A stretch of DNA of 64,000 nt from Blastococcus saxobsidens (GCF_010682065.1 NZ_JAAGWG010000009.1:1-64000); one strand, 5' to 3'; counted from the first letter of the stretch, positions 47,865-64,000 are shown. The notes: a model not told the origin generated them from the sequence alone. Numbers and translations are program-made.

Positions 47865-49112
47865 GTGCAACCGACGACGACCAGGGCGGGCTCCCCGCCA
47901 CCCCTGGACGGGCTGCGGGTGGTCGACATGTCGACCTCCTACGCCGGCCCGACCGCCTCCATGTACCTCGCCGACCTCGGTGCCGACGTCGTCAAGGTCG
48001 AGCGCCCGCGGACCGGCGACGACGCCCGCTCGTGGAGCCCGCCGAGCGTGGACGGGGCGTCGGCGTGGTTCGCCTCGGCCAACCGGAACAAGCGCAGCGT
48101 GGCGATCGACCTGCGCTCCGCCGACGGGATCGCCGTCCTGCACCGCCTGCTGGCCGACGCCGACGTCCTCATCGAGAACCTCAACCCCTCGAAGCTCGCG
48201 GCCCTCGGGCTGACGCCCGACGAGGTCCGGGCCCGCCACCCGCGGCTGGTCTACTGCGCGATGTCGGGCCTCGGCCTCACCGGGCCCGACGCCGCGCTGC
48301 CGGGCTACGACCTCGTCGCGCAGGCCCGGTCCGGCCTGATGTCGGTCACCGGGCCTGCTGGTGGCTCACCCCAGCGCGTCTCGACGGCGCTGTCCGACAT
48401 CGTCACCGGGATGGCCGCGGCGCTCGCCGTGACCGCCGCCGTCGTCCGGCAGCGCGCCACCGGGCTGGGCGACCTCGTCGACGTCTCCCTGCTGGACTCC
48501 GACCTCGCCCTCCTCGCGCCGCGGGTGGCCGCCTACCTGGCCGGGGAGCCCGAGCCCGCCCCCAGCGGCGGGACCGACTCGGTGCTGGCCGTCTACCAGC
48601 CCTTCCCGACCGCCGACCGGGACATCGTCATCGCGATCGGCAACGACGTGATCTGGCGGCGGTTCTGCGTCGCCGTCGGCCTGCCCGCGCTCGCCGAGGA
48701 CGACCGGCTCGGCGACAACGCGGGCCGGCGCGCGCACCGGTCCGAGCTGGTCGACGCGATCACCGAGGTCCTGGCCCGGCGGCCGGCGGCCGAGTGGCTG
48801 ACGGTCCTGGCCGACGCCGGCGTGCCCGCCTCCCTCGTGCAGGGCCTGTCGGAGGTGACGGCCGACCCCCAGGTGGTCGCGCGGGGTGCGATCCTGCCGG
48901 TGCCCGGCTTCGACGGCGTGCTCAACGGCGTGCGCAGCCCGTTCCGGCTGGCGTCGATCGCCGAGCCGCGCAACGAGCGGTTCCCCGACCTCGGAGAGCA
49001 CACCGTCGAGGTGCTCCAGGAGGCCGGCTTCGACCGCGGGGCCATCGACTCCCTCCTGGCCTCCGGCGCGGTCGCCGCGCAGGCGCCCCTCCCGACCCGG
49101 AGGGTCTCGTGA
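47865..49112 (+). CDS. class III CoA transferase, CaiB/BaiF family (415 aa)
   Basis: Transfers CoA between acyl donors and a carboxylic acid. The Rossmann opening LDGLRVVDMSTSYAGPTASMYLADLGADVVKVE and the motif SANRNKRSVAIDL are typical. The catalytic aspartate is expected in RVSTALSDIVTGMAA (about residue 183). The start is a GTG at 47865 with a weak purine-rich site upstream. First gene of the operon, it could activate the pathway's acid by CoA transfer. Its stop overlaps the next GTG. Confidence 0.9.
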   Translation: MQPTTTRAGSPPPLDGLRVVDMSTSYAGPTASMYLADLGADVVKVERPRTGDDARSWSPPSVDGASAWFASANRNKRSVAIDLRSADGIAVLHRLLADADVLIENLNPSKLAALGLTPDEVRARHPRLVYCAMSGLGLTGPDAALPGYDLVAQARSGLMSVTGPAGGSPQRVSTALSDIVTGMAAALAVTAAVVRQRATGLGDLVDVSLLDSDLALLAPRVAAYLAGEPEPAPSGGTDSVLAVYQPFPTADRDIVIAIGNDVIWRRFCVAVGLPALAEDDRLGDNAGRRAHRSELVDAITEVLARRPAAEWLTVLADAGVPASLVQGLSEVTADPQVVARGAILPVPGFDGVLNGVRSPFRLASIAEPRNERFPDLGEHTVEVLQEAGFDRGAIDSLLASGAVAAQAPLPTRRVS

Positions 49113-49918
49113 GCGGCGCAGCCGTCGTCGAGGTCGACCGGGACGGGCCGGTCGCGACCGTCCGGATCACCCGGCCCGAGGTGCACAACGCGCTCAACGC
49201 CCGGGTGCTGCGCGACCTGGACGCGGCGATCGCGGGCCTCCCGGCCGACGGCGTCCGGGCCATCGTGCTGACCGGTACCGGGCAGCGGGCGTTCAGCGCC
49301 GGCGCCGACCTCGACGAGCTCGCCGGGCTGTCCGCCGACGACGCCTACGACGTGCTCGCCGCCGGCCAGGCCGTGGTCGGGCGGATCGAGCGCTGCCCCG
49401 TCCCGGTGATCGCGGCGGTCAACGGGCTCGCCCTCGGCGGCGGCTTCGAGGTGGTGCTGGCCTGCACCTTCGCGGTCCTGGCCGACACCGCCCAGCTCGG
49501 GCTGCCCGAGGCCGGCCTCGGGCTCATGCCCGGCTACGGCGGCACCCAGCGGCTGGCCCGCCGGGTCGGGCAGCCCGTGGCGGCGCACACCATGCTCACC
49601 GGGGCCCGGATCCCGGCCGACCGCGCCCACGCCCTCGGCCTGACCCCGGTGCCGCCGGTCCCGGTGGCGGACGTGCTGGCGACGGCGCAGGAGCTGGCCG
49701 GCCAGATCGCGGCCCGCGGACCCCGGGCGGTGCGCTCGGTGCTGCTCGCGCTGCGGCACGGGGCCGACGCCCCCCTCGAGACCGGGCTGGCCTTCGAGAC
49801 CGCCCTGGCCGGCCTGGTCACCGGGGGCGCCGAGGCCGCCGAGGGGATCGCCGCCTTCAAGGAGCGCCGCCCGCCGCGGTTCGACGCCGCCCCCGCCCCC
49901 CAGGAGGACCAGGCATGA
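49109..49918 (+). CDS. enoyl-CoA hydratase family protein, BadK-like role possible (269 aa)
   Basis: Crotonase fold with oxyanion motifs FSAGADLDEL and LALGGGFEVVLAC and the hydratase stretch LPEAGLGLMPGYGGTQRLARR. The first catalytic glutamate (PEAGLG) is present, but the position of the second, usually in AMEMVLTG, reads AAHTMLTG with His for Glu, so chemistry may differ from classical hydration. GTGA overlap with the CoA transferase and ATGA overlap with the next dehydrogenase show tight coupling. In an alicyclic pathway it would hydrate the cyclohexene-carboxyl-CoA. Confidence 0.86.
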   Translation: MSGAAVVEVDRDGPVATVRITRPEVHNALNARVLRDLDAAIAGLPADGVRAIVLTGTGQRAFSAGADLDELAGLSADDAYDVLAAGQAVVGRIERCPVPVIAAVNGLALGGGFEVVLACTFAVLADTAQLGLPEAGLGLMPGYGGTQRLARRVGQPVAAHTMLTGARIPADRAHALGLTPVPPVPVADVLATAQELAGQIAARGPRAVRSVLLALRHGADAPLETGLAFETALAGLVTGGAEAAEGIAAFKERRPPRFDAAPAPQEDQA

Positions 49919-51168
49919 CCGGGCCCACCGCCGTCCCCGCGTCGTTCGAGACCGATCCCGACGCCTACCTGGCGCTGCACGGCGCGCTCGACGAGGAGGT
50001 CGCCGACGCGCTGCTGGACCCCCGGGAGCGCGCGGTGCGCGACCGCACCCGCGCGGTGGTCGCCGAGCACGTCGCCCCCGGCGCGGCCGCCCGCGACCGG
50101 GACCACGTCTTCGCCCACGACAGCTACCAGTCCCTCGCCCGGGCCGGCCTGGGTGGACTGCTGGTGCCGGAGGAGTACGGCGGCACGGCGGACAGCACGG
50201 TCGCCTACGCCGCGGCGATGGAGGAGATCACCGCCGGGTGCCCCGCCACGAGCCTGGTCTACATGACCCAGATGCACGCGGCGTACCCGATCCTGCACGC
50301 CGGCAGCCCGGAGCTCGCGCGGCAGTACGTCCCCGGCCTGGTCGACGGCAGCCGGTACGGCTCGCTCGGCGTCACCGAGCCCGGGGCGGGCAGCGACGCC
50401 TCCTCGCTGCGGACTCTGGCGGTGGCCGAGACGGACGCGACCGGGGAACCGACCGGGTACGCGATCACCGGGTCGAAGACCTTCATCACCACCGGCGACC
50501 GCTCCGACGTGGTGGTCTGCTTCGCCACCGTCGACCCCCGCGCCGGCCGGCGCGGCGTCACCGCCTTCGTCGTCGACGGCGACGCCCCCGGCCTGTCCCG
50601 GGGCGCGCCGATGGCCAAGACCGGGATGCACGGGTCGACCACCGCGGAGGTCTTCTTCGACGCGACGCCGGTCCCGGTGTCGCACCGGCTCGGGGGTGAG
50701 GGCGAGGGCTGGGCGATCGTGGTCAGCTCGGTGACCAAGTCGCGGATCAGCGCCGCCGCCCAGGGGGTCGGCCTGGCCCGCGGGGCGTACGCCGCCGCGC
50801 TCGCCGCCCTGCACCGGGCGCACGGCGCCGACGTCCCGCCCGACGCCGCGTTCGCCCTGGCCGACATGCGCTCGGCGGTGCTGCGCGGACGGCTGACGCT
50901 CCTCGGCGTCGCCCGCGAGGTGGATCGGACCGGCGGGGCGACCGGCGGCGCGATCGCGCTCATGAAGCAGGCCTGCACCGACATCGGCTGGCAGGTCGCC
51001 GTGGCGGCCACGAAGGTGCTCGGCCGGGTCGGCGACCTGTCCGCGCTCGGCGTCGAGCGGTACCTGCGGGACGCCAAGGTGACCCAGATCTACGACGGGA
51101 CCAACGAAGTGCAACGACTACTCATCGCCCGCGACACCGCCGGACGGCTCAAGGGGGTGCTCCGGTGA
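49915..51168 (+). CDS. acyl-CoA dehydrogenase with Asp at the usual base position (417 aa)
   Basis: A full-length acyl-CoA dehydrogenase. FAD and substrate motifs are present: SLGVTEPGAGSDASSL, ITGSKTFITTGDRSDV and MAKTGMHGSTTAEVFFD. The C-terminal motif that carries the catalytic glutamate (YEGTxEIQR in medium-chain enzymes) reads QIYDGTNEVQRLLIARD, so the base would be aspartate. Dehydrogenases for cyclohexane- and cyclohexene-carboxyl-CoA have been described with Asp bases, which fits the BadI-like partner in this operon. ATG overlaps the upstream stop. Confidence 0.9.
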   Translation: MTGPTAVPASFETDPDAYLALHGALDEEVADALLDPRERAVRDRTRAVVAEHVAPGAAARDRDHVFAHDSYQSLARAGLGGLLVPEEYGGTADSTVAYAAAMEEITAGCPATSLVYMTQMHAAYPILHAGSPELARQYVPGLVDGSRYGSLGVTEPGAGSDASSLRTLAVAETDATGEPTGYAITGSKTFITTGDRSDVVVCFATVDPRAGRRGVTAFVVDGDAPGLSRGAPMAKTGMHGSTTAEVFFDATPVPVSHRLGGEGEGWAIVVSSVTKSRISAAAQGVGLARGAYAAALAALHRAHGADVPPDAAFALADMRSAVLRGRLTLLGVAREVDRTGGATGGAIALMKQACTDIGWQVAVAATKVLGRVGDLSALGVERYLRDAKVTQIYDGTNEVQRLLIARDTAGRLKGVLR

Positions 51169-51932
51169 CCGCCGCGCAGCCGCAGACCCTGCAGGGCAAG
51201 GTCGCCGTCGTCACCGGCGCCGGCCGCGGGCTCGGCCGGGAGATGGCGCTGGCGCTGGCCGGCGCGGGGGCCGACGTCGCGGTCGCCGCGCGCAGCCGCG
51301 ACCAGCTGGAGTCGGTCGCCGCGGAGATCGAGGCCACCGGGCGGCGGTCGCTGGTCGTGCCCACCGACGTCACCGACGCGGCCGCCGTCCAGCGGCTGGT
51401 CGACACCACGCTGGCCGACCTCGGCGGCCTGGACGTCCTGGTGAACAACTCCGGCGTCATCGACAGCACCCCGCTGCTGGAGCAGGACCCGGCGGACTGG
51501 GACCGGGTGCTCGACACCAACGTCCGCGGCACCTACCTGGCCACCCGCGCCGCCGGCGCGCACATGGTGGCCCAGGGGTCGGGCAAGGTCGTCAACATCG
51601 CCTCGAACTTCGCGTTCAAGGGCGTTCCCGGGCATGCGGCCTACTGCGCCTCCAAGGCCGCGGTCGTGGCCTTCACCCGGGCGATGGCCGTGGAGTGGGC
51701 CCGCCACGGGGTCCAGGTCAACGCCCTCGCGCCGGGCTACTTCGCCACCGACATGAACGCCGACCTGCGGGCCGACGGCGAGGCGCTGTCGCGGGTGCTG
51801 CGCGCGGTCCCCGCCCGTCGGATGGGCGAGGCGTCCGAGCTGGCCCCGTGGCTGCTGCTCCTGGCCGGCCCGGCCTCGGACTTCATGACCGGGGAGGTGG
51901 TCGTCGTCGACGGCGGCCAGACCGCCCGATGA
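51165..51932 (+). CDS. SDR dehydrogenase, BadH-like role possible (255 aa)
   Basis: A classical SDR: GKVAVVTGAGRGLGREMALAL, NNSGVI (NNAG variant), active-site serine in VNIASNFAFKG and YCASKAAVVAFTRAMAVEW with YxxxK. C-terminal GEVVVVDGGQTAR is standard. NAD-type motif. Placed directly after the acyl-CoA dehydrogenase and before a BadI-like hydrolase, it is a good candidate for oxidising a cyclic 2-hydroxyacyl-CoA to the 2-keto acyl-CoA, as BadH does. The GTG start overlaps the upstream stop. Confidence 0.88.
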   Translation: MTAAQPQTLQGKVAVVTGAGRGLGREMALALAGAGADVAVAARSRDQLESVAAEIEATGRRSLVVPTDVTDAAAVQRLVDTTLADLGGLDVLVNNSGVIDSTPLLEQDPADWDRVLDTNVRGTYLATRAAGAHMVAQGSGKVVNIASNFAFKGVPGHAAYCASKAAVVAFTRAMAVEWARHGVQVNALAPGYFATDMNADLRADGEALSRVLRAVPARRMGEASELAPWLLLLAGPASDFMTGEVVVVDGGQTAR

Positions 51933-51982
51933 CCGCCCGACCGCACCCGAGCACCGCTCCGACGAGGAAGAAGGCGCAACCG

Positions 51983-52861
51983 ATGACCCAGGACAAGCTC
52001 ACGGTCGCCGTGGTGGGCGGCGGCACCATGGGGGCAGGGATCGCCGTCGTGGCCGCCCGCGCCGGGCACCGCACCATCCTCCGGGACCTCGACGACGCCG
52101 CCGTCCAGCGCGGCCTCGACACCGCCGAGGCGTTCCTGCGCCGCAGCGCCTCCCTGGGCAAGCTCACCGAGGACCAGCTCTCCGCCGCGCTGGGCAACCT
52201 GACCGGCACCACCGAGCTGCGCGACCTCGCGCCGGCCCAGGTCGTGATCGAGGCGGTGTTCGAGGACCTCGAGGTGAAGAGGACCCTCTTCGCCGAGCTC
52301 GACGACATCGTCTCCCGCGACGCGCTGCTGCACACCAACACCTCGACGCTCTCGGTCACCTCGATCGCCTCGGGCTCGCGCCACCCTGAACGGGTCGTCG
52401 GCACGCACTACTGCAACCCCGCGCAGCTGATGAAGCTCGTCGAGGTCGCCGAGGGCCGGCACACCGCGTCGGAGGCCACCAAGCGGTCGATGGAGTTCCT
52501 CGCCGGGGTGGGCAAGACGACGGTCCTCACCAAGGACCGGCCCGGCTTCATCCTCAACCGCTTCCTCATCCCGTGGGAGAACAACTGCATCCGGGCGCTG
52601 GAGGCGGGGCTCGGCACCGTCGAGTCGATCGACCGGGCGGTGCTGGGCGCGCTGCGGCACCCGATGGGCCCCTTCCAGCTGCTGGACGTCGTGGGCCTGG
52701 ACGTGCACAAGGCGGTGTCGATGCGGCTCTACGAGCAGCTGCGCGAGCCGCGCTTCGCACCGCCGCCGCTGGTCGACCGCATGATCGCCGCCGGCGACCT
52801 GGGGCGGAAGACCGGCCGCGGCTTCTACACCTACGACAGCACCCGGGCCTTCGGTGCCTGA
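51983..52861 (+). CDS. 3-hydroxyacyl-CoA dehydrogenase 1 (292 aa)
   Basis: NAD-binding VAVVGGGTMGAGIAVVAARAG, then VVIEAVFEDLEVKRTLFAEL and TNTSTLSVTSIA. The catalytic histidine sits in GTHYCNPAQLMKLVEVAEG. The C-terminal helical domain LNRFLIPWENNCIRALEAG, HPMGPFQLLDVVGLDVH and KTGRGFYTY completes the fold. The ATG at 51983 follows GAGGAAGAAGG at a slightly long distance. It oxidises a 3-hydroxyacyl-CoA to the ketoacyl-CoA. It is one of two paralogues in tandem. Confidence 0.92.
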   Translation: MTQDKLTVAVVGGGTMGAGIAVVAARAGHRTILRDLDDAAVQRGLDTAEAFLRRSASLGKLTEDQLSAALGNLTGTTELRDLAPAQVVIEAVFEDLEVKRTLFAELDDIVSRDALLHTNTSTLSVTSIASGSRHPERVVGTHYCNPAQLMKLVEVAEGRHTASEATKRSMEFLAGVGKTTVLTKDRPGFILNRFLIPWENNCIRALEAGLGTVESIDRAVLGALRHPMGPFQLLDVVGLDVHKAVSMRLYEQLREPRFAPPPLVDRMIAAGDLGRKTGRGFYTYDSTRAFGA

Positions 52862-52910
52862 GCCGGGCACGCCCGGCCCCACCACCGCCGACCACGAACG
52901 GAGCACGAGC

Positions 52911-53786
52911 ATGAGGACCTTCCCGAAGGTCGCCGTCCTGGGTTTCGGGACCATGGGGGGCGGCATCGCCCAGGTGGTCGCCGCCTCCGGCCGCGACGTC
53001 GTCGTCCTGGAGACCGAGCAGGCGCGGATCGACCGGGGCACTGCGGCGGTGCGCACCTTCCTCGACGGCGGCGTGAGCCGCGGCAAGACCACCGCCGAGG
53101 AGCGGGAGGCCGTCCTCGGCCGGATCCGCGGCACCACCGACGTCGCCGACCTCGCCGGCGTCGACCTGGTGATCGAGGCGGTCGTCGAGCAGCACGACGT
53201 CAAGGTGGAGCTGCTCGGCCGGGTCGCTGCGATCGTCGGGCCGGACGCCGTGCTGACGACGAACACCTCGGCGCTGTCGGTCACCGACCTGGCCGCGTCG
53301 CTCGCCGCCCCCGGCCGCATGGCCGGCCTGCACTTCTTCAACCCCGCGCCGGTCATGGCGCTGGTCGAGGTGGTGCGGGCGCTGCAGACCGACGCCGACG
53401 TCGTCGCCGACCTGGTGGCCTTCGTCGAGGACATCGGCAAGTCCCCGGTGGAGGTCAAGGACCGGCCCGGCTTCCTGGTCAACCGGCTGCTGATGCCCTA
53501 CCTCAACGACGTGGTGCAGGAGTACGACGACGGCCTGGCCAGCGCCGAGGACATCGACGTCGCCATCCAGCTGGGCCTGGGCTACAAGCTCGGCCCGCTG
53601 GCGCTGCTGGACCTGATCGGCATCGACGTGCACCGGCACGCCACCGAGTCCGCCTACGAGGCGACGCTCGACCCCCAGTTCGCCCCGCCGCCGTTGCTGC
53701 ACCAGATGGTCGCGGCCGGCTACCTCGGCACGAAGAGCGGCCGAGGCTTCCGCGCGGGCGCAGAAGAGCACGGAGAGGTTCGATGA
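52911..53786 (+). CDS. 3-hydroxyacyl-CoA dehydrogenase 2 (291 aa)
   Basis: The second tandem paralogue: VAVLGFGTMGGGIAQVVAASG, LVIEAVVEQHDVKVELL, TNTSALSVTDLA, the His motif GLHFFNPAPVMALVEVV, VEVKDRPGFLVNRLLMPYLND and KSGRGFRAG. It differs clearly from the first copy, so the pair is an old duplication with different substrates, for example ring and side-chain or successive beta-oxidation rounds. The ATG at 52911 lies after CGGAGC. The stop overlaps the next ATG. Confidence 0.92.
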   Translation: MRTFPKVAVLGFGTMGGGIAQVVAASGRDVVVLETEQARIDRGTAAVRTFLDGGVSRGKTTAEEREAVLGRIRGTTDVADLAGVDLVIEAVVEQHDVKVELLGRVAAIVGPDAVLTTNTSALSVTDLAASLAAPGRMAGLHFFNPAPVMALVEVVRALQTDADVVADLVAFVEDIGKSPVEVKDRPGFLVNRLLMPYLNDVVQEYDDGLASAEDIDVAIQLGLGYKLGPLALLDLIGIDVHRHATESAYEATLDPQFAPPPLLHQMVAAGYLGTKSGRGFRAGAEEHGEVR

Positions 53787-54562
53787 GCGACTACACCGAC
53801 ATCCGGAGCGAGACCTCGGGGCCGGTCCTGACCCTGACCATCGACCGGGAGGCCGCCGGCAACAAGCTGCGCGTGCAGACCCTGCTGGAGCTCAAGGACG
53901 CGCTCCAGCGGTTCCGCACCGACCCGGCGCTGCGGGCCGCGGTGCTCACCGGGGCCGGCGACAAGTTCTTCTGCATCGGTGGGGAGCACGACGAGACGAC
54001 GTCGCTGGACTACTCCCAGGTGCTGCCGATCATCGACGTCTACGAGGCGATCGACACCATCGCCAAGCCGGTGATCGCGGCCGTGAACGGCTTCGCGGTG
54101 GGCGGCGGCAACGTGCTGCACAACGTCTGCGACCTGACCATCGCCGCGGAGAACGCCGTCTTCCGGCAGGTCGGGCCCATGGTCGGCAGCTTCGACGCCG
54201 GCTACGGCACCTGGTACCTGGAGGACTCCATCGGCCGGAAGCGGGCCAAGGAGATGTGGTACCTCAACCGCAAGTACACCGCGGAGCAGGCGCTGGCCAT
54301 GGGACTGGTCAACGAGGTCGTCCCCGCCGGCCAGGCGGTGACGCGGGCCCAGGAGGTCGCCGCGGAGATCGCCACCCGCAGCCCGATGGCCATCGGCGCG
54401 CTCAAGGGCGCCTTCTCCGCCCGGCACACCGGGGTGCTCGGTCAGGCCCGCATGGCCCACGACCAGCAGCTCACCCTCTACCTGGCCACCAAGGAGGCGC
54501 ACGAGACGGGGAACGCCTTCGGCGCCAAGCGGGCGCCGGACCCGGAAACGTTCTGGTCGTGA
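53783..54562 (+). CDS. MenB/BadI-type crotonase, probable ring-opening 2-ketoacyl-CoA hydrolase (259 aa)
   Basis: The motif run QVGPMVGSFDAGYGTWYL followed by GRKRAKEMWYLNRKYTAEQALAMGLVNEVV is specific to the MenB/BadI branch of crotonases. The aspartate in GSFDAG is kept. MenB makes the naphthoyl-CoA ring of menaquinone; BadI hydrolyses 2-ketocyclohexane-carboxyl-CoA to pimeloyl-CoA. No menaquinone gene is near, and the operon supplies BadK/BadH/dehydrogenase-type partners, so ring opening of an alicyclic 2-ketoacyl-CoA is the better reading. FCIGGEHDE replaces the usual CxGGD. Confidence 0.85.
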   Translation: MSDYTDIRSETSGPVLTLTIDREAAGNKLRVQTLLELKDALQRFRTDPALRAAVLTGAGDKFFCIGGEHDETTSLDYSQVLPIIDVYEAIDTIAKPVIAAVNGFAVGGGNVLHNVCDLTIAAENAVFRQVGPMVGSFDAGYGTWYLEDSIGRKRAKEMWYLNRKYTAEQALAMGLVNEVVPAGQAVTRAQEVAAEIATRSPMAIGALKGAFSARHTGVLGQARMAHDQQLTLYLATKEAHETGNAFGAKRAPDPETFWS

Positions 54563-55589
54563 GGCGGCCCTGGGCCGGCCCCCGGCTCGACGACGACCAG
54601 CAGGCGGTCCTCGACCTGGTCGACGACCTCGCCGCGGACCGGCTCGCCCGGCGAGGCGACGACCGGCCCGACGACGTGGACGCCGCGCGGCGGGTCCTCG
54701 CCGAGCAGGGGTTGTGGACGCTGGGCGTCGCCGAGTCCGACGGCGGCGGAGGAGCGCCGGCGCCCACCATGCTGGTCGCCCTCGCCCGGCTCGGCGGCAC
54801 GTGGCCGGCCCTGGCGTGGGCGTCGGTCCAGGCGCACGCCGCGGCACCGGCCCTGGCGGCCGCCGGCCGGATGCCCGCGCTGCTCGACGGCCTGCACGAC
54901 GGCGCCCCGGTGGCGGTCGCGGCGGCCGACCCGGGCTCGCTGATGCTGACCGGCGGGCGGCTGACCGGCACCCTGGACCGGATCGACCCGGCCGGCCGGG
55001 AACCCCGGCTGGTGGTGCTGCTCGACGCCGACACCGCCGTCCTCGTCCCGCCGGAGGGCATCTCCTTCGGGCCCCCGGTCGCCCGCACCGGGTTCGACGG
55101 CGCGCTGACCGTCGGCGTCCGGCTGGACGCTGCGGTGCCCGAGGGCGACGTGCTGCGCGGCCCGCAGGTGCGGCGGGCCCGCACCCTCCTGGACGCCGGG
55201 GCGGCGGCGATCGCCGCCGGGATCGCCGAGTCCGCCGCGGCGACGGCGCTGGACTACAGCGCCGGCCGCGTGCAGTTCGGCGCCGCGCTCACCGAGCTCC
55301 CGACCGTCCGAGCGTCACTGGCGGCGCAGGCCGCGACCGCACGGGCGCTGCTGGTCACCGCCGTCACCGCCGACCTGGACCGGCCCGACGCGGTGGCCGC
55401 GGCCCTGCTGCCGGCCTGCGACGCGGCCCTCGACGTCGCGGCCGCCGCGGTGCAGTCGCACGGCGGCTACGGCTACATGACGGAGTACCCGGTCGAGGGC
55501 CTGCTGCGCGACGCGGTGTCGCTGCGGGCCGCCGCGGGCGCCGTGGAAGCCGCCCGGACGGCGGCGCGCACGCTGGTGGGGGCGGACGG

Positions 55590-55593: not shown

Positions 55594-56752
<1,159 letters not shown>

Positions 56753-56756
<4 letters not shown>

Positions 56757-57748
56757 GAGCAGCACTGGTCCAGGAGTTCGGCCCGCCGGGGACGCTCGTC
56801 GCCGGCGAGCTGCCCGATCCGGTGGCCGGCCCCGGCGAGGTGCTCGTCGGGGTCGCGGCGGCTGGGGTCAACTTCCCCGACATCCTCGTCGTGGCCGGGC
56901 AGTACCAGATCCTCCCGGAGCGCCCGTTCAGCCCCGGCAAGGAGATCGCCGGCACCGTCCGCGCGGTCGGGCCGGGCGTGGACGGCTTCGCCGTCGGCGA
57001 CCGGGTGCTCGCCCAGATCGAGCACGGCGGCTACGCCGAGCTGGTCGCGGTGCCCGCGCCGCAGGTCGTCGCGCTGCCCGACGAGGTCCCCTTCGTCGAC
57101 GCCGCCGCCTTCGGGCTGGGGGCGATCACCGCGCACTTCGCCCTCGTCCGCCGGGCCGGTCTGCGGCCGGGGGAGACCGTCCTGGTCACCGGCGCCGGCG
57201 GCGGGGTCGGCTCGGCGGGGGTGCAGATCGCCAAGGCGCTGGGCGCGAGCGTCGTCGCCGTCGCCCAGGACGAGGAGCGGGCCGCGCTCGCCCGCTCGCA
57301 GGGCGCCGACTCCGTGGTGCTGGCCGGCCCGTCGATGCGCGACGAGGTCATGGCGCTGACCGACGGACACGGGGCCGACGTGGTCCTCGAGCTCGTCGGG
57401 GGCGAGGTGTTCGCCCAGTCGCTGCGCTGCACCGCCTGGGAGGGGCGGCTGGTCGTGATCGGGTTCGCCTCCGGGGACCTGCCGACCATCAAGGCCGGTC
57501 ACGTCCTGGTCAAGAACCTCGCCGTGCTGGGCCTGCAGGTCTCGGACTACCGCGACCGCGAACCGGAGTCCGTCCGGGCCGCGACCGAGCACCTGCTGGA
57601 GCTCTACGTCGCGGGGCGGCTCACCGTCCCGGTCGCGCGCACCTACCCGCTCGAGCAGGCCGGCGCCGCCCTCGAGGCCGTCCGGTCCGGGAGCGTCGCC
57701 GGGAAGGTCGTCCTCACCGTCGACCCGGTCGCCGCCGCACCCAGCTGA
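56753..57748 (+). CDS. NADPH:quinone oxidoreductase/zinc-free MDR alcohol dehydrogenase (331 aa)
   Basis: Medium-chain dehydrogenase/reductase of the quinone oxidoreductase branch: GVNFPDILVVAGQYQ, PGKEIAGTVRAVG, VLVTGAGGGVGSAGVQIAKALGA and IGFASGDLPTIKAGHVLVKN. Zinc-binding cysteines are absent. It would reduce a double bond or carbonyl of the pathway intermediate, or recycle NADPH with a quinone. GTG start overlaps the upstream stop. Substrate is unknown. Confidence 0.9.
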
Positions 57749-57795
57749 GCCCCCCACCTCCAGCCCCACCGACCCCCCCACGAGGAGCGATCGCG

Positions 57796-59490
57796 GTGAC
57801 CGACCAGCGAACCAGCACGCCGTCCCCGACCCCGACCGGAGCGCACCCGGGCATCCGGCCCGACAGCCGGCTGACCGCCGAGCTCGCCCGCGAGTACGAG
57901 AGCAGCGGGGCCTGGACCGCCGAACCGCTGCGCCGGCTGCTCACCACCGCGGCCGCCGAGCACCCGGACCGGGTGGCGGCGGTCGACCGGACCAGCGGGC
58001 AGCCGGGCGCGCGGCGGACGACCTACGCCGAACTCGACGAGCGGGCGCACCGGTACGCCTGCGGGCTGCACGCCCTGGGCGTCCGGCCCGGCGACTTCGT
58101 CGCGGTGATGCTGCCCAACTCCACGGACTTCGCCGCCCTGATCTTCGCGATCAACGAGCTGGGTGCGGTCTACAGCGGCATCCCGGTGGCCTACGGCGAG
58201 CGGGAGGTCGAGGTCATCCTGCGCCGGACCGGCGCCGCCGTCGTGGTGGTGGCGGAGCGGTTCGGCAGCAACAGCCCGCGAGCGCTGGTGCAGGGCCTGC
58301 GGGGCGGGCTACCGGCGATCCAGCACGTGCTGGTGGCCGGCGAGGTCCCGGACGGCCCGGACGGCGACGGCGTCGCGCCCCTGTCCTCGCTGCTCGACGC
58401 CCCCGACGTGCAGCTGCCCGAACCCGACCCGCGGGCGCTGTGCCACGTCGGCTTCACCTCGGGCACGACCGGGGAGCCGAAGGGGGTCATGAACACCCAT
58501 CAGACCCTGTTCGCGGTGCTGCGGAACTGGGTGGCGCACATGGGCCGGGAGACGCTCGGCGACCCCCTGGTCAACCTGATCGCCTCACCGGTCGGGCACC
58601 ACACCGGGTTCCTGTGGGGCGTGCTGCTGACCACCCACCTGCGCGGGACGGGCGTGTACCTGGACCGGTGGGTGCCCGAGCAGGCCGTGACCGTGGTGCG
58701 GGAGGAGGGCGTCACGACGATGTTCTCCGCACCCACGTTCCTGCAGGACCTGGTGCTCACCGGGCTGGCGCAGGACGAGGAGTGCTCGCTGCGCACCGTG
58801 GTGCTGGCCGGCGCCCCGGTGCCGCGGACCCTGCCGACGGTGGCCGGCGAGATGTTCGGCGCCTACGTCTGCCCGGCCTGGGGCATGACCGAGCTGGGCA
58901 TCGGGATCTCCTGCTCGCCGGCGCTGCCCGCCGCGGCGCAGGCGACCGACGGCGTCCCGGTGCCGGGCACCGATGTCAGCGTCGTCGACACCGACGGGGC
59001 CGACGCCGAGCCGGGGGTCATCGGCGCGCTGCGGATCCGCGGGGCCGGGCTCTTCCTGGGCTACCTCGACCTGCCAGAGGCGACAGCCCGGGAGATCGAC
59101 GCCGACGGCTGGTTCACCACCGGCGACACCGCCCGCCGCACCGAGGAGGGTTACCTCCTGCTCGAGGGGCGCACCAAGGACATCGTGATCCGCGGTGGGG
59201 AGAACATCCCGGTCACCGTGGTGGAGAGCCTGCTGTTCCAGCACCCGCAGGTGGTCGAGGCCTCGGTCATCGGGGTCCCCGACGTCCGGCTGGGGGAGCG
59301 GGCCTGCGCGATCGTGGTGCCGCAGGGCGACGCCGAGCCCACGCTGGCCGAGGTGTGCGAGTTCCTCCTGGCCCAGGGGCTGAGCAAGCACTTCCTGCCC
59401 GAACGGCTGGAACTGGTCGACGCGCTCCCCAAGACGCCCAGCGGCAAGATCCGCAAGGTGGAGCTGCGCACCCGGTACGCGGGCTCGTGA
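57796..59490 (+). CDS. acyl-CoA synthetase/AMP-dependent ligase (564 aa)
   Basis: An ANL-superfamily ligase that activates a carboxylic acid with ATP and CoA. Core motifs: VGFTSGTTGEPKGVMNTHQT (A3), ACPAWGMTELGIG, the A8-A10 region DGWFTTGDTARRTEEGYLLLEGRTKDIVIRGGENI and the C-terminal lysine in PKTPSGKIRKVELR. The GTG at 57796 is preceded by GAGGAG. It resembles cyclohexanecarboxylate-, 4-chlorobenzoate- and fatty-acid CoA ligases; the acid is not determined. A second ligase begins at 63897. Confidence 0.92.
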   Translation: MTDQRTSTPSPTPTGAHPGIRPDSRLTAELAREYESSGAWTAEPLRRLLTTAAAEHPDRVAAVDRTSGQPGARRTTYAELDERAHRYACGLHALGVRPGDFVAVMLPNSTDFAALIFAINELGAVYSGIPVAYGEREVEVILRRTGAAVVVVAERFGSNSPRALVQGLRGGLPAIQHVLVAGEVPDGPDGDGVAPLSSLLDAPDVQLPEPDPRALCHVGFTSGTTGEPKGVMNTHQTLFAVLRNWVAHMGRETLGDPLVNLIASPVGHHTGFLWGVLLTTHLRGTGVYLDRWVPEQAVTVVREEGVTTMFSAPTFLQDLVLTGLAQDEECSLRTVVLAGAPVPRTLPTVAGEMFGAYVCPAWGMTELGIGISCSPALPAAAQATDGVPVPGTDVSVVDTDGADAEPGVIGALRIRGAGLFLGYLDLPEATAREIDADGWFTTGDTARRTEEGYLLLEGRTKDIVIRGGENIPVTVVESLLFQHPQVVEASVIGVPDVRLGERACAIVVPQGDAEPTLAEVCEFLLAQGLSKHFLPERLELVDALPKTPSGKIRKVELRTRYAGS

Positions 59491-60425
59491 GCACGCTCTT
59501 CGTGGGGCTGGGCCGCATGGGCGCACCCATGGCCCGCCGGCACGCCGCCCACTTCGACACGGTGCTGTCCGACGCCGATCCCGCCGTCGCCACCGCGCTG
59601 GCCGAGGAGCTGGGCTGCCGCGCCCTGGCGACGCCTGCCGAGCTGCCCGACGACGTCGACGCCGTCGTCCTCATGCTGCCCGACAGCCGGGTGGTCGAGA
59701 CGGTGCTCCTGACCGACGGGCTGCTCGGCCGGCTGCCGGCCGGGTCGCTGGTCGTCGACATGGGCTCCTCCGAGCCCGCCAGCACCCGGCGGCTGGCCGC
59801 CGACGCACGGGCCCGCGGCGTGGGGTACGTGGACGCGCCGGTCTCCGGCGGCGTCGCGCGCGCCGTCACCGGAGAGCTGTCGATCATGGTCGGCGGGGAC
59901 CCGGAGGACGTCGAGCGCGCCCGGCCGCACCTGGAGCCGCTGGGCGGTTCCGTGCTCGTGGTGGGCGGGGCCGGCACCGGCCATGCCGCCAAGGCGCTGA
60001 ACAACCTGCTGTCGGCGAGCAACCTGGCCGCGGCCGCCGAGGTGCTCACCGTCGCTGCGGGCTCCGGGATCGCCCCGGAGGTGATGGTCGAGGTGCTCAA
60101 CGCGTCGACCGGCCGGTCCCAGGCCACCGAGGTGAAGTACCCGAAGCACGTCCTGACCGGCAGCTACGACTCCGGCTTCGCCATGGACCTGATGATCAAG
60201 GACCTCGGCATCGCCCGGTCGCTGGGCACCGCCCAGGGGGCGAGCACGCCGGTCACCGACGCGGCCTTCGCCGCAGCGGTCGCCGCCCGCGAGGCGCTGG
60301 GCGGCCCTGGGCTGGACCACACCGAGGTCGCCCGCCACTACGAGTCGGTCAACCGGGTCTCGCTGCGCAGCGGGACCGGGGACCGGCAGGCACCACCCGC
60401 AACCGACGACGAGGAGACCCCGTGA
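59487..60425 (+). CDS. 3-hydroxyisobutyrate dehydrogenase-like NAD(P) oxidoreductase (312 aa)
   Basis: A beta-hydroxyacid dehydrogenase: FVGLGRMGAPMARRHAAH (nucleotide site), VDAPVSGGVARAVTGELSIMVGG, AKALNNLLSASNLAAAAEVL and the conserved lysine in KDLGIARSLG. The family oxidises 3-hydroxyisobutyrate, glycolate-type or other 2/3-hydroxy acids. Here it probably acts on a branched-chain fragment released by the pathway. GTGA overlap upstream; the stop overlaps the CMD gene. Confidence 0.9.
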   Translation: MSTLFVGLGRMGAPMARRHAAHFDTVLSDADPAVATALAEELGCRALATPAELPDDVDAVVLMLPDSRVVETVLLTDGLLGRLPAGSLVVDMGSSEPASTRRLAADARARGVGYVDAPVSGGVARAVTGELSIMVGGDPEDVERARPHLEPLGGSVLVVGGAGTGHAAKALNNLLSASNLAAAAEVLTVAAGSGIAPEVMVEVLNASTGRSQATEVKYPKHVLTGSYDSGFAMDLMIKDLGIARSLGTAQGASTPVTDAAFAAAVAAREALGGPGLDHTEVARHYESVNRVSLRSGTGDRQAPPATDDEETP

Positions 60426-60832
60426 CCGACGACCCGCAGGCCTACATCGACGACATGGCCCGATCCCGGGGCTACGTCCTCGACTACCACAAGGTCATGG
60501 CCAAGCACGACTTCCCGGTGCTCCAGGCGGCCAACGGGCTGGTGAGCGCGGCGTACCTGGACCAGCGCCGGCTCGACCGGAGGACCAAGGAGCTCATCTT
60601 CATCGTCAGCCTGACGGTGATCCGGGCGTCCAAGGGGCACATCCAGAGCCACATCCGGGTGGCGCTGGACCTCGGGGTCAGCCCGGAGGAGATCCTCGAG
60701 GCCATCGAGATCGCCCTCCCGGAGGCCGGGATCGTGGCGTTCCAGGCCGGCTTCGACGCCTGGCGCGAGGTCGTGGGCGCCGACGGGCTCGAGCCCACGG
60801 TCGCGGTGCACGAGGGCGGCAGCGGGGCCTGA
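60422..60832 (+). CDS. carboxymuconolactone decarboxylase-fold protein without AhpD cysteines (136 aa)
   Basis: An all-helical CMD/AhpD-type protein: DRRTKELIFIVSLTVIRASKGHIQSHIRVALDLGVSPEEI is the family helix pair. The CxxC pair used for peroxidase chemistry in AhpD is absent; KGH stands where the first cysteine would be. This is closer to the gamma-carboxymuconolactone decarboxylase branch, which acts without redox cysteines. It may decarboxylate or isomerise a lactone or keto-acid intermediate. Tightly coupled on both sides. Confidence 0.85.
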   Translation: MTDDPQAYIDDMARSRGYVLDYHKVMAKHDFPVLQAANGLVSAAYLDQRRLDRRTKELIFIVSLTVIRASKGHIQSHIRVALDLGVSPEEILEAIEIALPEAGIVAFQAGFDAWREVVGADGLEPTVAVHEGGSGA

Positions 60833-61677: not shown

Positions 61678-62063
61678 TCCCCGAACGGCTGGCCGGCTGG
61701 GCCCGTGCGGTGGCCCACGACCCGGAGAACGCCCACATCGGCCGGTTCACCGCCTTCACCGCCCGCCTGGTCGACGACCGCGGGGGAGACGTCCTGGTCA
61801 GCTACGACCACGGCGCGGTGACGGTCGAGGACGGTGTGCCCGGCGCCGACCTGGAGCTGCGCGGTCCGGTCAGCGCCTGGCGGGAGCTGGTCGACCCCGA
61901 CGCCGCTCCCCGCCGGCACGACCTGCTGGCCCTGACCAAGGCCCCCGACGGCATCGAGGTGGTGTCCGGCCGGGAGCAGCTGATCCGGCACCTGCGGGTC
62001 ATCACCCGGCTGGTGCAGCTCGCGCGAGCGGCCGGCGACGACGGCGCGGAGGTGGACCGGTGA
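61674..62063 (+). CDS. small SCP2-like protein (129 aa)
   Basis: A small alpha/beta protein: ENAHIGRFTAFTARLVDDRGG, then DVLVSYDHGAVTVEDGVPGADLELRGPVSAWRELVD and a C-terminal helix KAPDGIEVVSGREQLIRHLRVITRLVQLA. The strand-helix order resembles the SCP2 sterol/lipid-binding fold, but the match is weak and no catalytic motif is seen. It may bind a hydrophobic CoA intermediate. GTG start and stop both overlap neighbours. Confidence 0.68.
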   Translation: MIPERLAGWARAVAHDPENAHIGRFTAFTARLVDDRGGDVLVSYDHGAVTVEDGVPGADLELRGPVSAWRELVDPDAAPRRHDLLALTKAPDGIEVVSGREQLIRHLRVITRLVQLARAAGDDGAEVDR

Positions 62064-62947
62064 TCGAGGACCCGGTGATCGAGGACATCGTCGGCCGGTA
62101 CGTCCACCTCCGGTCCTCCGGCACCGACTACCGCGTGTACTTCGAGGAGGCCGGCAGCGGACCGGTGCTCCTGGCCCTGCACACCGCGGGCTCGGACAGC
62201 CGGCAGTTCCGGCACCTGCTCACCGATGCCGAGGTCACCGGCCGGCACCGCGTGGTCGCCTTCGACCTGCCGTGGCACGGCCGATCGCTGCCGCCGGAGG
62301 GCTGGTGGACCGAGGAGTACCTGCTCACCACCGACCGCTACGTCGCGATCGTGGAGGACTTCTGCGCGGCCCTCGGCCTGGACCGCCCGGTCGTCCTCGG
62401 CTGCTCCATGGCCGGCTCGCTCGTTCTCGAGCTCGCCCGGCGCGACCCGGAGCGGTGGGGCGGGGTCATCGGCCTGTCCGGGGCGCTGCACGTCGAGGGC
62501 CGGTTCCAGGACTGGTCGCTGCACCCGGACATCAACGCCCAGCAGTCCGTCGCGTCCTGGACGTCGAGCCTGATGTCGCCGTCCAGCCCGGAGGTCTCCC
62601 GCCGCGAGGTGTGGTGGACCTACAGCCAGGGCGGACCGGGGATCTACCGGGGCGACACGTACTTCTACTCCGAGGACCTGGACCTCCGCGGCCGGGCAGG
62701 GGACATCGACACCGCGCGGTGCCCGGTGTACCTGCTCACCGGCGAGTACGACCACGCCTGCACGCCCGACGACACCGCCGAGGCCCTGGCGGCCGTCCCC
62801 GGCGCCCGCGGCGGCACCATGCCGGGCATCGGGCACTTCCCCATGGCGGAGAACTACCCGCTGTTCCGCACCCACCTGCTGCCCGTGCTGGCCGAGCTGG
62901 CCTCGGCCCGCGACGGCCGGGCCGACCTCCCGGAGGACCGCCGATGA
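62060..62947 (+). CDS. alpha/beta hydrolase (295 aa)
   Basis: Canonical fold: oxyanion segment LLALHTAGSDSRQFRHLL, nucleophile elbow VLGCSMAGSLVLELARRD (Ser about residue 116), acid residue in LLTGEYDHACTPDD and histidine in GIGHFPMAENYP. CSMAG rather than GxSxG-rich SMGG suggests a lactone or ester hydrolase. The start GTG lies within GTGA. Between two lactonase-like proteins, it probably opens a cyclic ester or thioester made by the pathway. Confidence 0.88.
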   Translation: MIEDPVIEDIVGRYVHLRSSGTDYRVYFEEAGSGPVLLALHTAGSDSRQFRHLLTDAEVTGRHRVVAFDLPWHGRSLPPEGWWTEEYLLTTDRYVAIVEDFCAALGLDRPVVLGCSMAGSLVLELARRDPERWGGVIGLSGALHVEGRFQDWSLHPDINAQQSVASWTSSLMSPSSPEVSRREVWWTYSQGGPGIYRGDTYFYSEDLDLRGRAGDIDTARCPVYLLTGEYDHACTPDDTAEALAAVPGARGGTMPGIGHFPMAENYPLFRTHLLPVLAELASARDGRADLPEDRR

Positions 62948-63849: not shown

Positions 63850-63896
63850 CCCAGGGTTCACCACGCTCCGTTCCGCCGACCGCTCCAGGAGAACCG

Positions 63897-64000
63897 ATGG
63901 CCTCGTTCACGTTCAGCCAGCTCAGCCCGACGGCCTACCTCGAGCGCTCGGCGCGGGTCTTCCCCGAGCGGACCGCGATCATCGACGGCGACCGCCGGTT
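63897..64000 (+). CDS. acyl-CoA synthetase, N-terminal part (3' end outside window)
   Basis: The ORF begins at ATG 63897 after AGGAGAACC, a good ribosome site. About 34 residues are visible before the window ends. They read as the start of an acyl-CoA ligase (SPTAYLERSARVFPERTAIIDG), the typical opening of long- or medium-chain ligases in which the phrase FPERTAIIDG is near invariant. It would be the second ligase of the same operon. Confidence 0.8.
   Translation, partial: MASFTFSQLSPTAYLERSARVFPERTAIIDGDRR

What the first reader, a model, noticed from the sequence alone, without database searches (positions are those of the whole stretch)
47865..64000. Repressor-controlled operon that looks like an aerobic alicyclic acid (BadI-type ring opening) pathway
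Eighteen same-strand genes lie with stop-start overlaps or gaps under 51 bp. They include the parts of the cyclohexanecarboxylate route (acyl-CoA ligase, acyl-CoA dehydrogenase with Asp at the base position, enoyl-CoA hydratase, SDR, MenB/BadI-type hydrolase) plus two CaiB transferases, two 3-hydroxyacyl-CoA dehydrogenases, a short second acyl-CoA dehydrogenase, a CMD-fold protein, two lactonase-like hydrolases and a second ligase. The combination is richer than the known aliA/B-badK-badH-badI set and is in an actinobacterium, so the substrate may be a substituted alicyclic or terpenoid acid.
Basis: partly seen in the sequence, partly recalled or inferred. Interest (0 to 1): 0.75.

Follow-up and report, generated by a model that had tools for sequence, protein, structure and literature searches.

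The report
Uncharacterised BadI-like ring-opening catabolic operon
A soil actinobacterium carries a regulated 20-gene operon, parts of which recur in distant bacteria, that probably breaks open carbon rings with an enzyme related to, but distinct from, the known ring-opening enzymes, which points to a degradation pathway that may not have been named yet.

Summary
In detail: 18 same-strand genes run from 47865 to the window end, and the contig shows two more (20 genes, ending at 67991). The "BadI-like" protein is neither MenB nor BadI. In a 63-row tree it forms its own clade (100/100) beside MenB, NCBI-named BadI and cyclohexanecarboxylate-cluster (chc) hydrolases, and it keeps their catalytic Ser/Asp. 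Two plasmids and a third strain carry a named badI as well as this gene. The gene sits in a cassette that recurs in Actinobacteria and Proteobacteria: ligase, acyl-CoA dehydrogenase, hydratase, SDR, two 3-hydroxyacyl-CoA dehydrogenases, PIG3-like reductase and two CaiB-fold proteins. One CaiB is transferase-type; the other has racemase His/Asp/Glu in 47 of 47 aligned homologues. A GntR/FCD regulator and an MHS-type transporter lie divergently. The palindrome AATGTCnGnCATT occurs at only two places in the 4.09-Mb genome, both in this intergenic region, one overlapping a -35-like box. Best reading: a CoA-dependent ring-opening pathway, distinct from the cyclohexanecarboxylate one, for an alicyclic acid yielding an alpha-branched dicarboxylyl-CoA. 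The substrate is unknown; no reaction or expression was shown. New variant of a known kind.

The parts
45276..46010 (-). GntR/FCD (FadR-type) transcriptional regulator, probable repressor of the operon
   Evidence: Pfam FCD 1.8e-26 and GntR 4.2e-21; homologues near the cassette in many of the actinobacterial loci
46125..47465 (-). MFS transporter of metabolite:H+ symporter (MHS) type, possibly uptake of the acid substrate
   Evidence: TIGR00883 176.2 bits, below its 443.45-bit cut-off; Pfam MFS_1
47605..47617 (.). Probable operator 1 (AATGTCGGTCATT), transporter side of the divergent intergenic region
   Evidence: One of two exact places in the genome; visible in the ten-locus alignment, weak in L067
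47784..47796 (.). Probable operator 2 (AATGTCCGACATT, perfect palindrome), operon side
   Evidence: overlaps the -35-like TTGACA at 47795-47800, with TACGTT at 47819-47824 (sequence printed)
47865..49112 (+). CaiB1: family III CoA-transferase, transferase-type (GYD). Start 47865 or 47919
   Evidence: PF02515; best NCBIfam model succinate--glutarate CoA-transferase 300.2 of 750 bits; top PDB hits 10uh (named formyl-CoA transferase) and 9br6/9br7; Y130/D160, numbered from 47919, in 51 of 51 aligned actinobacterial homologues
49109..49918 (+). Enoyl-CoA hydratase family (ECH)
   Evidence: PF00378
49915..51168 (+). ACAD1: acyl-CoA dehydrogenase with Asp at the base position (IYDGTNE)
51165..51932 (+). 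SDR dehydrogenase
51983..52861 (+). HBDH1: 3-hydroxyacyl-CoA dehydrogenase
   Evidence: PF02737 + PF00725
52911..53786 (+). HBDH2: 3-hydroxyacyl-CoA dehydrogenase, directly upstream of BadIL in 52 of 55 counted actinobacterial loci
53783..54562 (+). BadIL: MenB/BadI-superfamily hydrolase of a separate clade (predicted beta-keto-acyl-CoA C-C hydrolase)
54559..55593 (+). ACAD2: short acyl-CoA dehydrogenase homologue without the base motif, possible partner subunit of ACAD1 (inference)
55590..56756 (+). CaiB2: alpha-methylacyl-CoA racemase-type protein (H146, D176, E261)
   Evidence: Aligned to M. tuberculosis FAR 2g04 over residues 11-370 and to AMACR 8rmw over 10-326; the three residues in 47 of 47 aligned homologues. 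The best E-value is to a transferase, over residues 11-278
56753..57748 (+). PIG3-like NAD(P)H quinone oxidoreductase / enoyl reductase (QOR1)
   Evidence: TIGR02824 240.6 of 296.8 bits
57796..59490 (+). Lig1: AMP-forming acid-CoA ligase, AliA-like
   Evidence: TIGR03208 436.5 of 792.3 bits; 38% to named AliA, 41% to the G032 ligase
59487..60425 (+). 3-hydroxyisobutyrate dehydrogenase-family protein (HIBD)
   Evidence: PF03446 + PF14833; below the cut-off of every NCBIfam model listed
60422..60832 (+). Carboxymuconolactone decarboxylase-fold protein (CMD)
   Evidence: PF02627
60832..61677 (+). Metallo-beta-lactamase-fold hydrolase, lactonase-like
   Evidence: PF00753; AidB-lactonase model 69.9 of 360 bits
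61674..62063 (+). Protein of 129 aa without a Pfam or NCBIfam match at E <= 0.001
62060..62947 (+). Alpha/beta hydrolase
   Evidence: PF00561
62944..63849 (+). Amidohydro_2 protein related to 2-pyrone-4,6-dicarboxylate lactonase
   Evidence: PF04909; PDB 2ffi 1.7e-28
63897..64000 (+). Lig2: second AMP-forming ligase (continues to 65459 on contig C75); followed outside the window by an SSADH-like aldehyde dehydrogenase (65520-66944) and a PIG3-like reductase (66999-67991)

Best explanation
The operon encodes a CoA-dependent pathway that opens an alicyclic ring and differs from the known cyclohexanecarboxylate (bad-ali/chcpca) and menaquinone systems. Proposed steps, all inferred from family membership and conserved order: the MHS-type transporter imports an acid; Lig1 makes its CoA thioester; ACAD1 (perhaps with ACAD2) dehydrogenates it, ECH hydrates it, and the SDR or an HBDH oxidises the ring hydroxyl to a beta-ketone; BadIL hydrolyses the ring C-C bond by a reverse Dieckmann reaction with its conserved Ser136/Asp138, giving a dicarboxylyl mono-CoA; CaiB1 moves or supplies CoA at the other carboxylate; CaiB2 epimerises the resulting alpha-branched acyl-CoA so that beta-oxidation by ACAD and HBDH can continue. 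HIBD, the lactonase-like hydrolases, CMD and the aldehyde dehydrogenase are lineage-specific extras. The GntR/FCD protein probably represses both directions at the two AATGTCnGnCATT sites and lets go in the presence of an acid or acyl-CoA. Shown here: separate hydrolase clade, recurrent cassette, racemase residues, operator-like sites unique in the genome. Not shown: substrate, any reaction, any expression, any binding.
For: BadIL is one clade at 100/100, with the MenB, BadI-named and chc groups each one clade (63 rows; larger tree). Ser136, Asp138, Gln129, Gly131 and Trp159 are invariant in 87 of 87 BadIL proteins, while E. coli MenB Arg91 and Tyr97 are not kept. Cassette (81 of 85 loci counted): in 55 actinobacterial loci HBDH2 is directly upstream in 52 and ACAD2 directly downstream in 41; in 22 proteobacterial or unassigned loci CaiB1 is directly upstream in 18 and a clustered ligase directly downstream in 18. 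AliA-like ligase. Racemase-type residues of CaiB2 in 47 of 47 from both phyla. Named badI and BadIL are separate genes in C. basilensis, P. fungorum (59, 63) and S. abyssi (58, 64). The operator pattern occurs at two places only in 4.09 Mb, with none for the backward control. A near form (AATGTCnGACATT, up to one mismatch) is intergenic somewhere in the fetched stretch of 26 of 55 actinobacterial loci, against 0 of 55 reversed-sequence controls and 0 of 30 other loci. The second PIG3-like copy occurs in exactly the 4 of 23 genomes of the genus that hold BadIL.
Against: No thiolase in the window operon (a thiolase cluster occurs near some other loci). Four relatives place an extradiol dioxygenase and an HsaA-like gene in the cassette (families tested on L071 only), which suggests an aromatic-derived substrate there. 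The Asp base of ACAD1 is not general: four of four proteobacterial proteins printed have Glu. The ligase and hydratase are about as close to cyclohexanecarboxylate-cluster genes as those are to each other. The racemase call for CaiB2 rests on three residues and alignment; curated models and the best PDB hit name transferases. CaiB1 residues were counted only in actinobacterial homologues. The Tyr258 equivalence of MenB is ambiguous (Y233 or the next column). The GntR homologue is not found in every fetched stretch that has the motif (10 of 26 without one at 55% or more). No substrate, activity or expression data.
Confidence: 0.57

Rival explanations
1. BadIL cleaves a non-alicyclic beta-keto (retro-Claisen) CoA thioester, for example one formed after meta-cleavage of an aromatic ring, so the cassette is a lower pathway for aromatic-derived or acyclic branched acids.
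For: In R. rhodnii, Amycolatopsis sp. MtRt-6 (two loci) and S. jeddahensis (L071, L076, L077, L078) the cassette holds an extradiol dioxygenase cluster and an HsaA-like monooxygenase cluster, with a flavin reductase cluster in three of the four and an acetoacetate--CoA ligase cluster in all four (families tested on L071). In R. opacus pROB02 bph genes lie nearby, beyond transposase genes.
Against: AliA-like ligase and closeness of the hydrolase to BadI and MenB, which both make or break rings. The extradiol cluster is in 5 of 85 loci and the HsaA-like one in 4 of 85; unrelated aromatic genes in other loci were not sought.
Confidence: 0.24
2. It is simply the cyclohexanecarboxylate (bad-ali/chcpca) pathway of an actinobacterium.
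For: Ligase, dehydrogenase, hydratase, SDR and BadI-superfamily hydrolase are all present. The ligase and hydratase are about as similar to those of cyclohexanecarboxylate clusters as those are to each other.
Against: Hydrolase outside both the BadI and chc clades and far below the badI cut-off (213 of 467.6 bits). ACAD1 29% to named AliB, against 47% between that AliB and the G032 dehydrogenase. A chcpca-like cluster exists separately in the family (G032). Named badI and BadIL coexist in three strains.
Confidence: 0.09
3. The hydrolase is the menaquinone MenB of this organism.
For: MenB models score highest among curated models (252.8 and 232.7 bits), and MenB structures rank first for the predicted fold.
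Against: Scores below the cut-offs (380 and 342.7). The genome has another MenB/BadI-superfamily protein (C14:74158-74958) that groups with MenB in the larger tree, on a long branch. BadIL is outside the MenB clade and patchy.
Confidence: 0.02
4. A beta-oxidation operon for alpha-methyl-branched fatty or dicarboxylic acids in which BadIL is only an enoyl-CoA hydratase.
For: Racemase-type protein, two HBDHs, HIBD and acyl-CoA dehydrogenases fit branched-acid oxidation. Ordinary crotonase structures align nearly as well as MenB to the model (first 50 rows Z 25.0-27.4).
Against: MenB/BadI catalytic Ser and Asp are invariant in 87 of 87, and the operon already has an ordinary ECH.
Confidence: 0.08

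Closest known systems
bad-ali cluster with BadI (Rhodopseudomonas, Aromatoleum; PMC9795900, passages read) and the actinobacterial chcpca cluster (R. aetherivorans BCP1; PMC5906575, passages read)
   Same: Acid-CoA ligase, acyl-CoA dehydrogenase, enoyl-CoA hydratase, SDR and a MenB/BadI-superfamily hydrolase
   Different: Separate hydrolase clade; extra transferase-type and racemase-type CaiB proteins, paired 3-hydroxyacyl-CoA dehydrogenases, GntR/FCD or sigma-54-type regulators; named badI and this gene coexist in three strains
Monoterpene ring cleavage (mrc) genes of Castellaniella defragrans 65Phen (PMC4109377, abstract and passages read)
   Same: Ligase, hydratase, dehydrogenase and BadI-type ring hydrolase proposed to act on an alkyl-substituted cyclohexene acid; a methacrylyl-CoA branch is proposed there
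   Different: MrcE is 88% identical to an Azoarcus BadI according to the paper; the window protein is in another clade, and the window operon lacks the mrc dienoyl-reductase and MaoC-type genes. MrcE itself was not in the trees
thn operon of anaerobic naphthalene degradation (ThnP, ThnO; PMC11659651, passages read)
   Same: A CoA-transferase that shifts CoA between two carboxylates of an alicyclic dicarboxylate so that beta-oxidation can go on
   Different: ThnP is a family I enzyme; CaiB1 is family III, and intramolecular transfer is only inferred
EchA20/IpdAB steroid ring opening (PMC5380842, passages read)
   Same: Crotonase-superfamily beta-keto ring hydrolase
   Different: EchA20 is reported as about 28% to MenB and 24% to BadI, while BadIL averages 40-44% to both. 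EchA20 was not compared with BadIL directly
[quoted passage not shown]
   Same: Fold and catalytic Ser/Asp (Z 27.4 to 2iex)
   Different: Separate clade; Arg91/Tyr97 of E. coli MenB not conserved; catabolic context

Membership tests
BadI (2-ketocyclohexanecarboxyl-CoA hydrolase, TIGR03210) | Score over the curated cut-off (467.6 bits) | tested here: not met
   213 bits; L143 homologue 219 bits
BadI (2-ketocyclohexanecarboxyl-CoA hydrolase, TIGR03210) | Falls in the clade of NCBI-named BadI proteins | tested here: not met
   Separate clades, BadIL 100/100 and BadI 100/99, five named BadI proteins (bootstrap not fully settled)
BadI (2-ketocyclohexanecarboxyl-CoA hydrolase, TIGR03210) | Catalytic Ser and Asp shared with MenB (roles recalled) | tested here: met
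   S136/D138 in 87 of 87 BadIL proteins
BadI (2-ketocyclohexanecarboxyl-CoA hydrolase, TIGR03210) | Hydrolyses 2-ketocyclohexanecarboxyl-CoA | not testable with these tools
   Needs enzyme assay
chcpca-type actinobacterial cyclohexanecarboxylate cluster | Hydrolase in the clade of the chc-type proteins | tested here: not met
   chc group one clade 100/99, BadIL outside. The group comes from a G032-seeded search; the R. aetherivorans proteins themselves were not in the tree
MenB | Inside the MenB clade or over a MenB cut-off | tested here: not met
Alpha-methylacyl-CoA racemase type (CaiB2) | Catalytic His, Asp, Glu (recalled: M. tuberculosis MCR H126, D156, E241) | tested here: met
   H146, D176, E261 in 47 of 47; aligned to 2g04 and 8rmw
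Alpha-methylacyl-CoA racemase type (CaiB2) | Closest curated or solved relative is a racemase | tested here: inconclusive
   Best PDB E-values are to a transferase over the first two thirds; racemases follow, FAR aligned over residues 11-370. The NCBIfam families listed are transferases and one CoA isomerase
Alpha-methylacyl-CoA racemase type (CaiB2) | Racemase activity | not testable with these tools
   Needs assay
Family III CoA-transferase (CaiB1) | PF02515 fold with catalytic Asp and no racemase His | tested here: met
   PF02515 2.6e-119; D160 and Y130 in 51 of 51 actinobacterial homologues; proteobacterial ones not counted
AliA cyclohexanecarboxylate-CoA ligase (TIGR03208) | Over the curated cut-off | tested here: not met
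   436.5 of 792.3 bits, although it is the best model
AliB cyclohexanecarboxyl-CoA dehydrogenase (TIGR03207) | Over the curated cut-off | tested here: not met
   113.9 of 575.35 bits; 29% to a named AliB
GntR/FCD repressor of this operon | Binds the palindrome and is released by an inducer | not testable with these tools
   Sites unique in the genome and recurrent in relatives, but binding not shown

The most novel reading that the evidence does not exclude
The cassette is an unnamed pathway that recurs in Actinobacteria and Proteobacteria (and, for the hydrolase with a CaiB-fold neighbour, Rokubacteria). A fourth lineage of the MenB/BadI superfamily opens the ring of an alkyl-substituted alicyclic acid next to its carbonyl; a family III transferase then re-activates the new carboxylate, and an AMACR-type racemase corrects its alpha-branch before further beta-oxidation.
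Probability: 0.42. Interest if true: 0.7.

Novelty: new variant of a known kind. Interest (0 to 1): 0.5.

Why it matters
If right, it adds a recurrent ring-opening route to the short list of known ones (bad-ali/chcpca, mrc, thn, steroid EchA20/IpdAB), and gives a testable gene set for the breakdown of substituted alicyclic acids such as terpenoid and naphthenic acids. The divergent regulator and its two operator-like sites make inducer screening with a reporter straightforward. In 16 of 17 plasmid records found, the hydrolase carries only the label 'enoyl-CoA hydratase-related protein' (the 17th has no annotation), so the pathway is hidden in annotation.

Tried and rejected
Substrate guesses. 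Neighbouring genes were used to look for a substrate and gave no consistent answer. MmgE/PrpD, HIBADH, isochorismatase and allantoinase-like genes occur beside some loci. Extradiol dioxygenase and HsaA-like genes occur in one subgroup, a pair of CoA-transferase subunits in another (L097, L098, L140; L089 has one of the two clusters), and an Asp/Glu racemase in a third (L104, L106, L108; family tested on L104). Nicotinate-like, steroid, estrogen and plain monoterpene (mrc) assignments were considered and not adopted.

Literature. Nine searches listed no paper whose title or abstract describes this cassette. Only listings were seen except for six papers of which passages were read. The library holds open-licence PubMed Central papers only, so this is weak evidence of absence. 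The one relevant paper using 'BadI-like' (PMC7793797) concerns an estrogen cluster in Novosphingobium; its protein was not compared with BadIL.

Numbers and choices. A first regular-expression count of the racemase His left many rows unread and was replaced by the alignment count (homologues of at least 45% identity and over 300 aa). The same script's count of the ACAD1 base shows YDGTN in 36 of 48 actinobacterial rows; in the others an earlier motif or FDGTRV matched, and they were not resolved. Tree 1 used 103 of 115 sequences (near-copies thinned). It held two crotonases of about 30% identity mislabelled as BadIL (second copies in L088 and L093) and a long-branch outgroup; the organism's own MenB was also on a long branch. 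These four were left out of tree 2, which kept every second remaining row named by a locus id (63 rows). After seeing tree 1, two rows of the G032-seeded search (L157, L158) were put in the MenB group and one (L038) in BadIL. In one search, 81 of 85 loci were counted: L120, L132 and L135 gave no gene calls, and in L130 the hydrolase was not called. Group labels A/P/R were set by locus number after reading record titles; L128 (unassigned) is counted with the proteobacterial set. Gene labels are loose best-hit labels (33-35% identity and up). The motif form scored (AATGTCnGACATT, up to one mismatch) differs slightly from the pattern, and its hits are not all at the cassette promoter. A glycine-loop argument for intramolecular transfer was considered and not used.

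Fold search. One search is a second look at Foldseek hits. MenB ranks first, but ordinary crotonases follow within Z 1-2, so it does not separate functions.

Full report
What is there. The window is bases 1-64000 of a 152-kb contig in a 4.09-Mb, 77-contig genome, with 74% G+C over the 100 kb examined. The nearest named carriers of the key gene in the species scan are Blastococcus saxobsidens DSM 44509 and B. capsensis (97% identity), so the host is a Geodermatophilaceae actinobacterium, probably Blastococcus (inference). Codon-usage gene calling confirms 18 co-directional genes from 47865/47919 to the window end. Reading on gives the rest of the second ligase, an aldehyde dehydrogenase over the NCBIfam cut-off for NADP-dependent succinic semialdehyde dehydrogenase (778.8 of 730 bits) and a PIG3-like oxidoreductase over its cut-off (443.9 of 296.8 bits). 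The run is thus 20 genes, ending at 67991. Divergently upstream lie an MFS transporter, MHS-like but below that model's cut-off, and a GntR/FCD regulator.

The hydrolase is a separate lineage. NCBIfam scores it below the relevant cut-offs: MenB 252.8 of 380 and 232.7 of 342.7 bits, BadI 213 of 467.6 bits. I built trees with five NCBI-named BadI proteins, MenB proteins, a group of chc-type proteins seeded by the Geodermatophilaceae locus G032, and homologues of the window protein. In the careful tree (63 rows) each of the four groups is one clade: BadIL 100/100, chc 100/99, BadI 100/99, MenB 100/98 (the program notes that its bootstrap had not fully settled; three rows were assigned to groups after the first tree). 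Mean identity of BadIL to BadI is 42-44% and to MenB 40-43%. The residues equivalent to E. coli MenB Ser161, Asp163, Gln154, Gly156 and Trp184 are invariant in 87 of 87 BadIL sequences. Arg91 and Tyr97 are not conserved, and 20 positions (for example F62, Y87, D91, R128, W144, E147, N162, R214, H215) are diagnostic of the clade. Catalytic roles are recalled from MenB work and were not tested; the Tyr258 equivalence is open. An AlphaFold model (mean pLDDT 80.4, pTM 0.83) has the crotonase fold with MenB structures at the top (Z 27.4), but ordinary crotonases follow closely.

Two systems side by side. Cupriavidus basilensis plasmid pRK1-1 and a Paraburkholderia fungorum plasmid each carry an NCBI-named badI gene in one place and a BadIL cassette in another. 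Salipiger abyssi has them on two plasmids. In the window's own family, G032 carries a chcpca-like cluster (BadI-type hydrolase, ACAD, SDR, ligase, ECH), resembling the chcpca cluster that R. aetherivorans BCP1 induces on cyclohexane- and cyclopentanecarboxylate (PMC5906575, passages read). So the window operon is probably not that pathway.

A recurrent cassette. One scan of a collection of 84,980 species genomes returned 80 loci, the best of 213 relatives, and a plasmid search gave 17 records. With five of the plasmid loci added (85 loci), 81 could be counted. Among 55 actinobacterial loci the same-strand run holds HBDH1 in 50, HBDH2 in 50, CaiB1 in 48, ECH in 48, ACAD1 in 47, SDR in 43, ACAD2 in 41, the ligase in 31, CaiB2 in 30 and the PIG3-like gene in 21 (some loci are cut by contig or fetch ends). 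Among 22 proteobacterial or unassigned loci CaiB1 is directly upstream in 18 and a clustered ligase directly downstream in 18. A clustered sigma-54-dependent activator (named) occurs in 15 of the 85 loci, on the opposite strand in 11. Four Rokubacterial MAG loci hold the gene, three with a CaiB-fold gene directly downstream but without the rest of this order. The gene is patchy. At E <= 1e-60 there are matches in 8 of 112 genomes of the family, own included; one of them (G032) belongs to the chc clade, so 7 of 112 are BadIL. At E <= 1e-70 there are 4 of 150 in the order sample (own included; one of them, G127, sits on a side branch within BadIL) and 2 of 396 in the phylum sample (own included). 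Within the genus 4 of 23 genomes have it, and exactly those four carry a second PIG3-like gene, which ties the downstream genes to the operon.

Two CaiB-fold proteins. CaiB1 is transferase-type (Tyr130/Asp160, numbered from 47919, in 51 of 51 actinobacterial homologues); its best curated model is succinate--glutarate CoA-transferase (300.2 of 750 bits), and its top PDB hits are a protein named formyl-CoA transferase and succinate--hydroxymethylglutarate CoA-transferases. CaiB2 matches a transferase best over its first two thirds, but aligns along most of its length with an M. tuberculosis racemase, and its His146, Asp176 and Glu261 are invariant in 47 of 47 homologues, 31 actinobacterial and 16 proteobacterial. 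A plasmid search with CaiB2 alone returned 18 records; 8 of the 12 listed are also BadIL records. A racemase in the core of the pathway would mean an alpha-branched acyl-CoA intermediate. Ring cleavage of a 2-oxocycloalkane-carboxyl-CoA with a substituent next to the ketone would give exactly this, once CoA is moved to the new carboxylate. Precedent for such a CoA shift after alicyclic ring cleavage is ThnP (PMC11659651, passages read), although ThnP is a family I enzyme. This ordering is my inference.

Regulation. Aligning the transporter-CaiB1 intergenic regions of ten loci showed two conserved palindromes, weak in L067. The pattern AATGTCnGnCATT occurs in the whole genome at two places only, 47605-47617 and 47784-47796, and the backward control pattern at none. 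In the window the two places give four strand matches with up to one mismatch, against 0.06 expected from shuffles. The near form AATGTCnGACATT with up to one mismatch is intergenic somewhere in the fetched stretch in 26 of 55 actinobacterial loci, found in 0 of 55 reversed-sequence controls, and intergenic in 0 of 30 other loci. Some of these hits are not at the cassette promoter. The second window site overlaps TTGACA (47795-47800), 18 bases before TACGTT (47819-47824; sequence printed). This fits a repressor at the promoter. Loci with a GntR homologue of at least 55% have the motif in 16 of 29, those without one in the fetched stretch in 10 of 26, so the link to this particular GntR is suggestive only.

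What it is not. The ligase is the most AliA-like gene. The dehydrogenase is 29% to a named AliB, whereas that AliB and the G032 dehydrogenase share 47%; but the ligase and the hydratase are about as close to the cyclohexanecarboxylate-cluster genes as those are to each other. Asp at the ACAD1 base position is real, but four of four proteobacterial cassette proteins printed have Glu. The lactonase-like hydrolases, HIBD and CMD are shared mainly with Geodermatophilaceae, Prauserella and Pseudonocardia nigra.

Verdict. The alicyclic reading is plausible, but the system is a distinct, apparently unnamed variant rather than an enriched BadI pathway. The substrate is open: a substituted alicyclic acid is favoured, and an aromatic-derived beta-keto acid is the main rival because four loci add extradiol dioxygenase and HsaA-like genes. 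On rechecking, the hydratase and ligase comparison was found to be less one-sided than first written, and the odds were moved slightly towards the ordinary cyclohexanecarboxylate pathway (0.58 to 0.57, and 0.08 to 0.09).

Noticed in passing
L071, L076, L077, L078: BadIL cassettes with an extradiol dioxygenase cluster directly before CaiB1, an HsaA-like monooxygenase cluster directly after ACAD2 and an acetoacetate--CoA ligase cluster; flavin reductase and peptide-type ABC transporter clusters in L071, L076 and L077 only. Families were tested on L071.
   Followed up: partly
L122, L124, L126, L127, L130: A gene for a sigma-54 factor lies close to the BadIL cluster; in four of the five it is next to the sigma-54-dependent activator, as if some alphaproteobacterial clusters carry a dedicated rpoN copy (domains checked for L122 only).
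   Followed up: partly
L097, L098, L140: A gene pair annotated as CoA transferase subunits (L140) lies just before the cassette; it could be a plain CoA-transferase or an IpdAB-like ring hydrolase.
   Followed up: no
37860-45260: Cytochrome bd subunit genes and a 1115-aa ABC exporter with two ATPase domains (possibly fused CydDC) lie beside a BlaI-like repressor and an M48 peptidase pair, suggesting protease-controlled regulation.
   Followed up: no
61674-62063: 129-aa protein with no Pfam or NCBIfam match, kept in the operon of Blastococcus and Modestobacter relatives.
   Followed up: no
L143, 5901-8759: In Cupriavidus basilensis a type II 3-dehydroquinate dehydratase, a DUF4286 protein and two SDRs lie next to the divergent sigma-54 activator of the BadIL cluster; a DUF4286 gene also lies near the Ancylobacter cluster (L170).
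   Followed up: no
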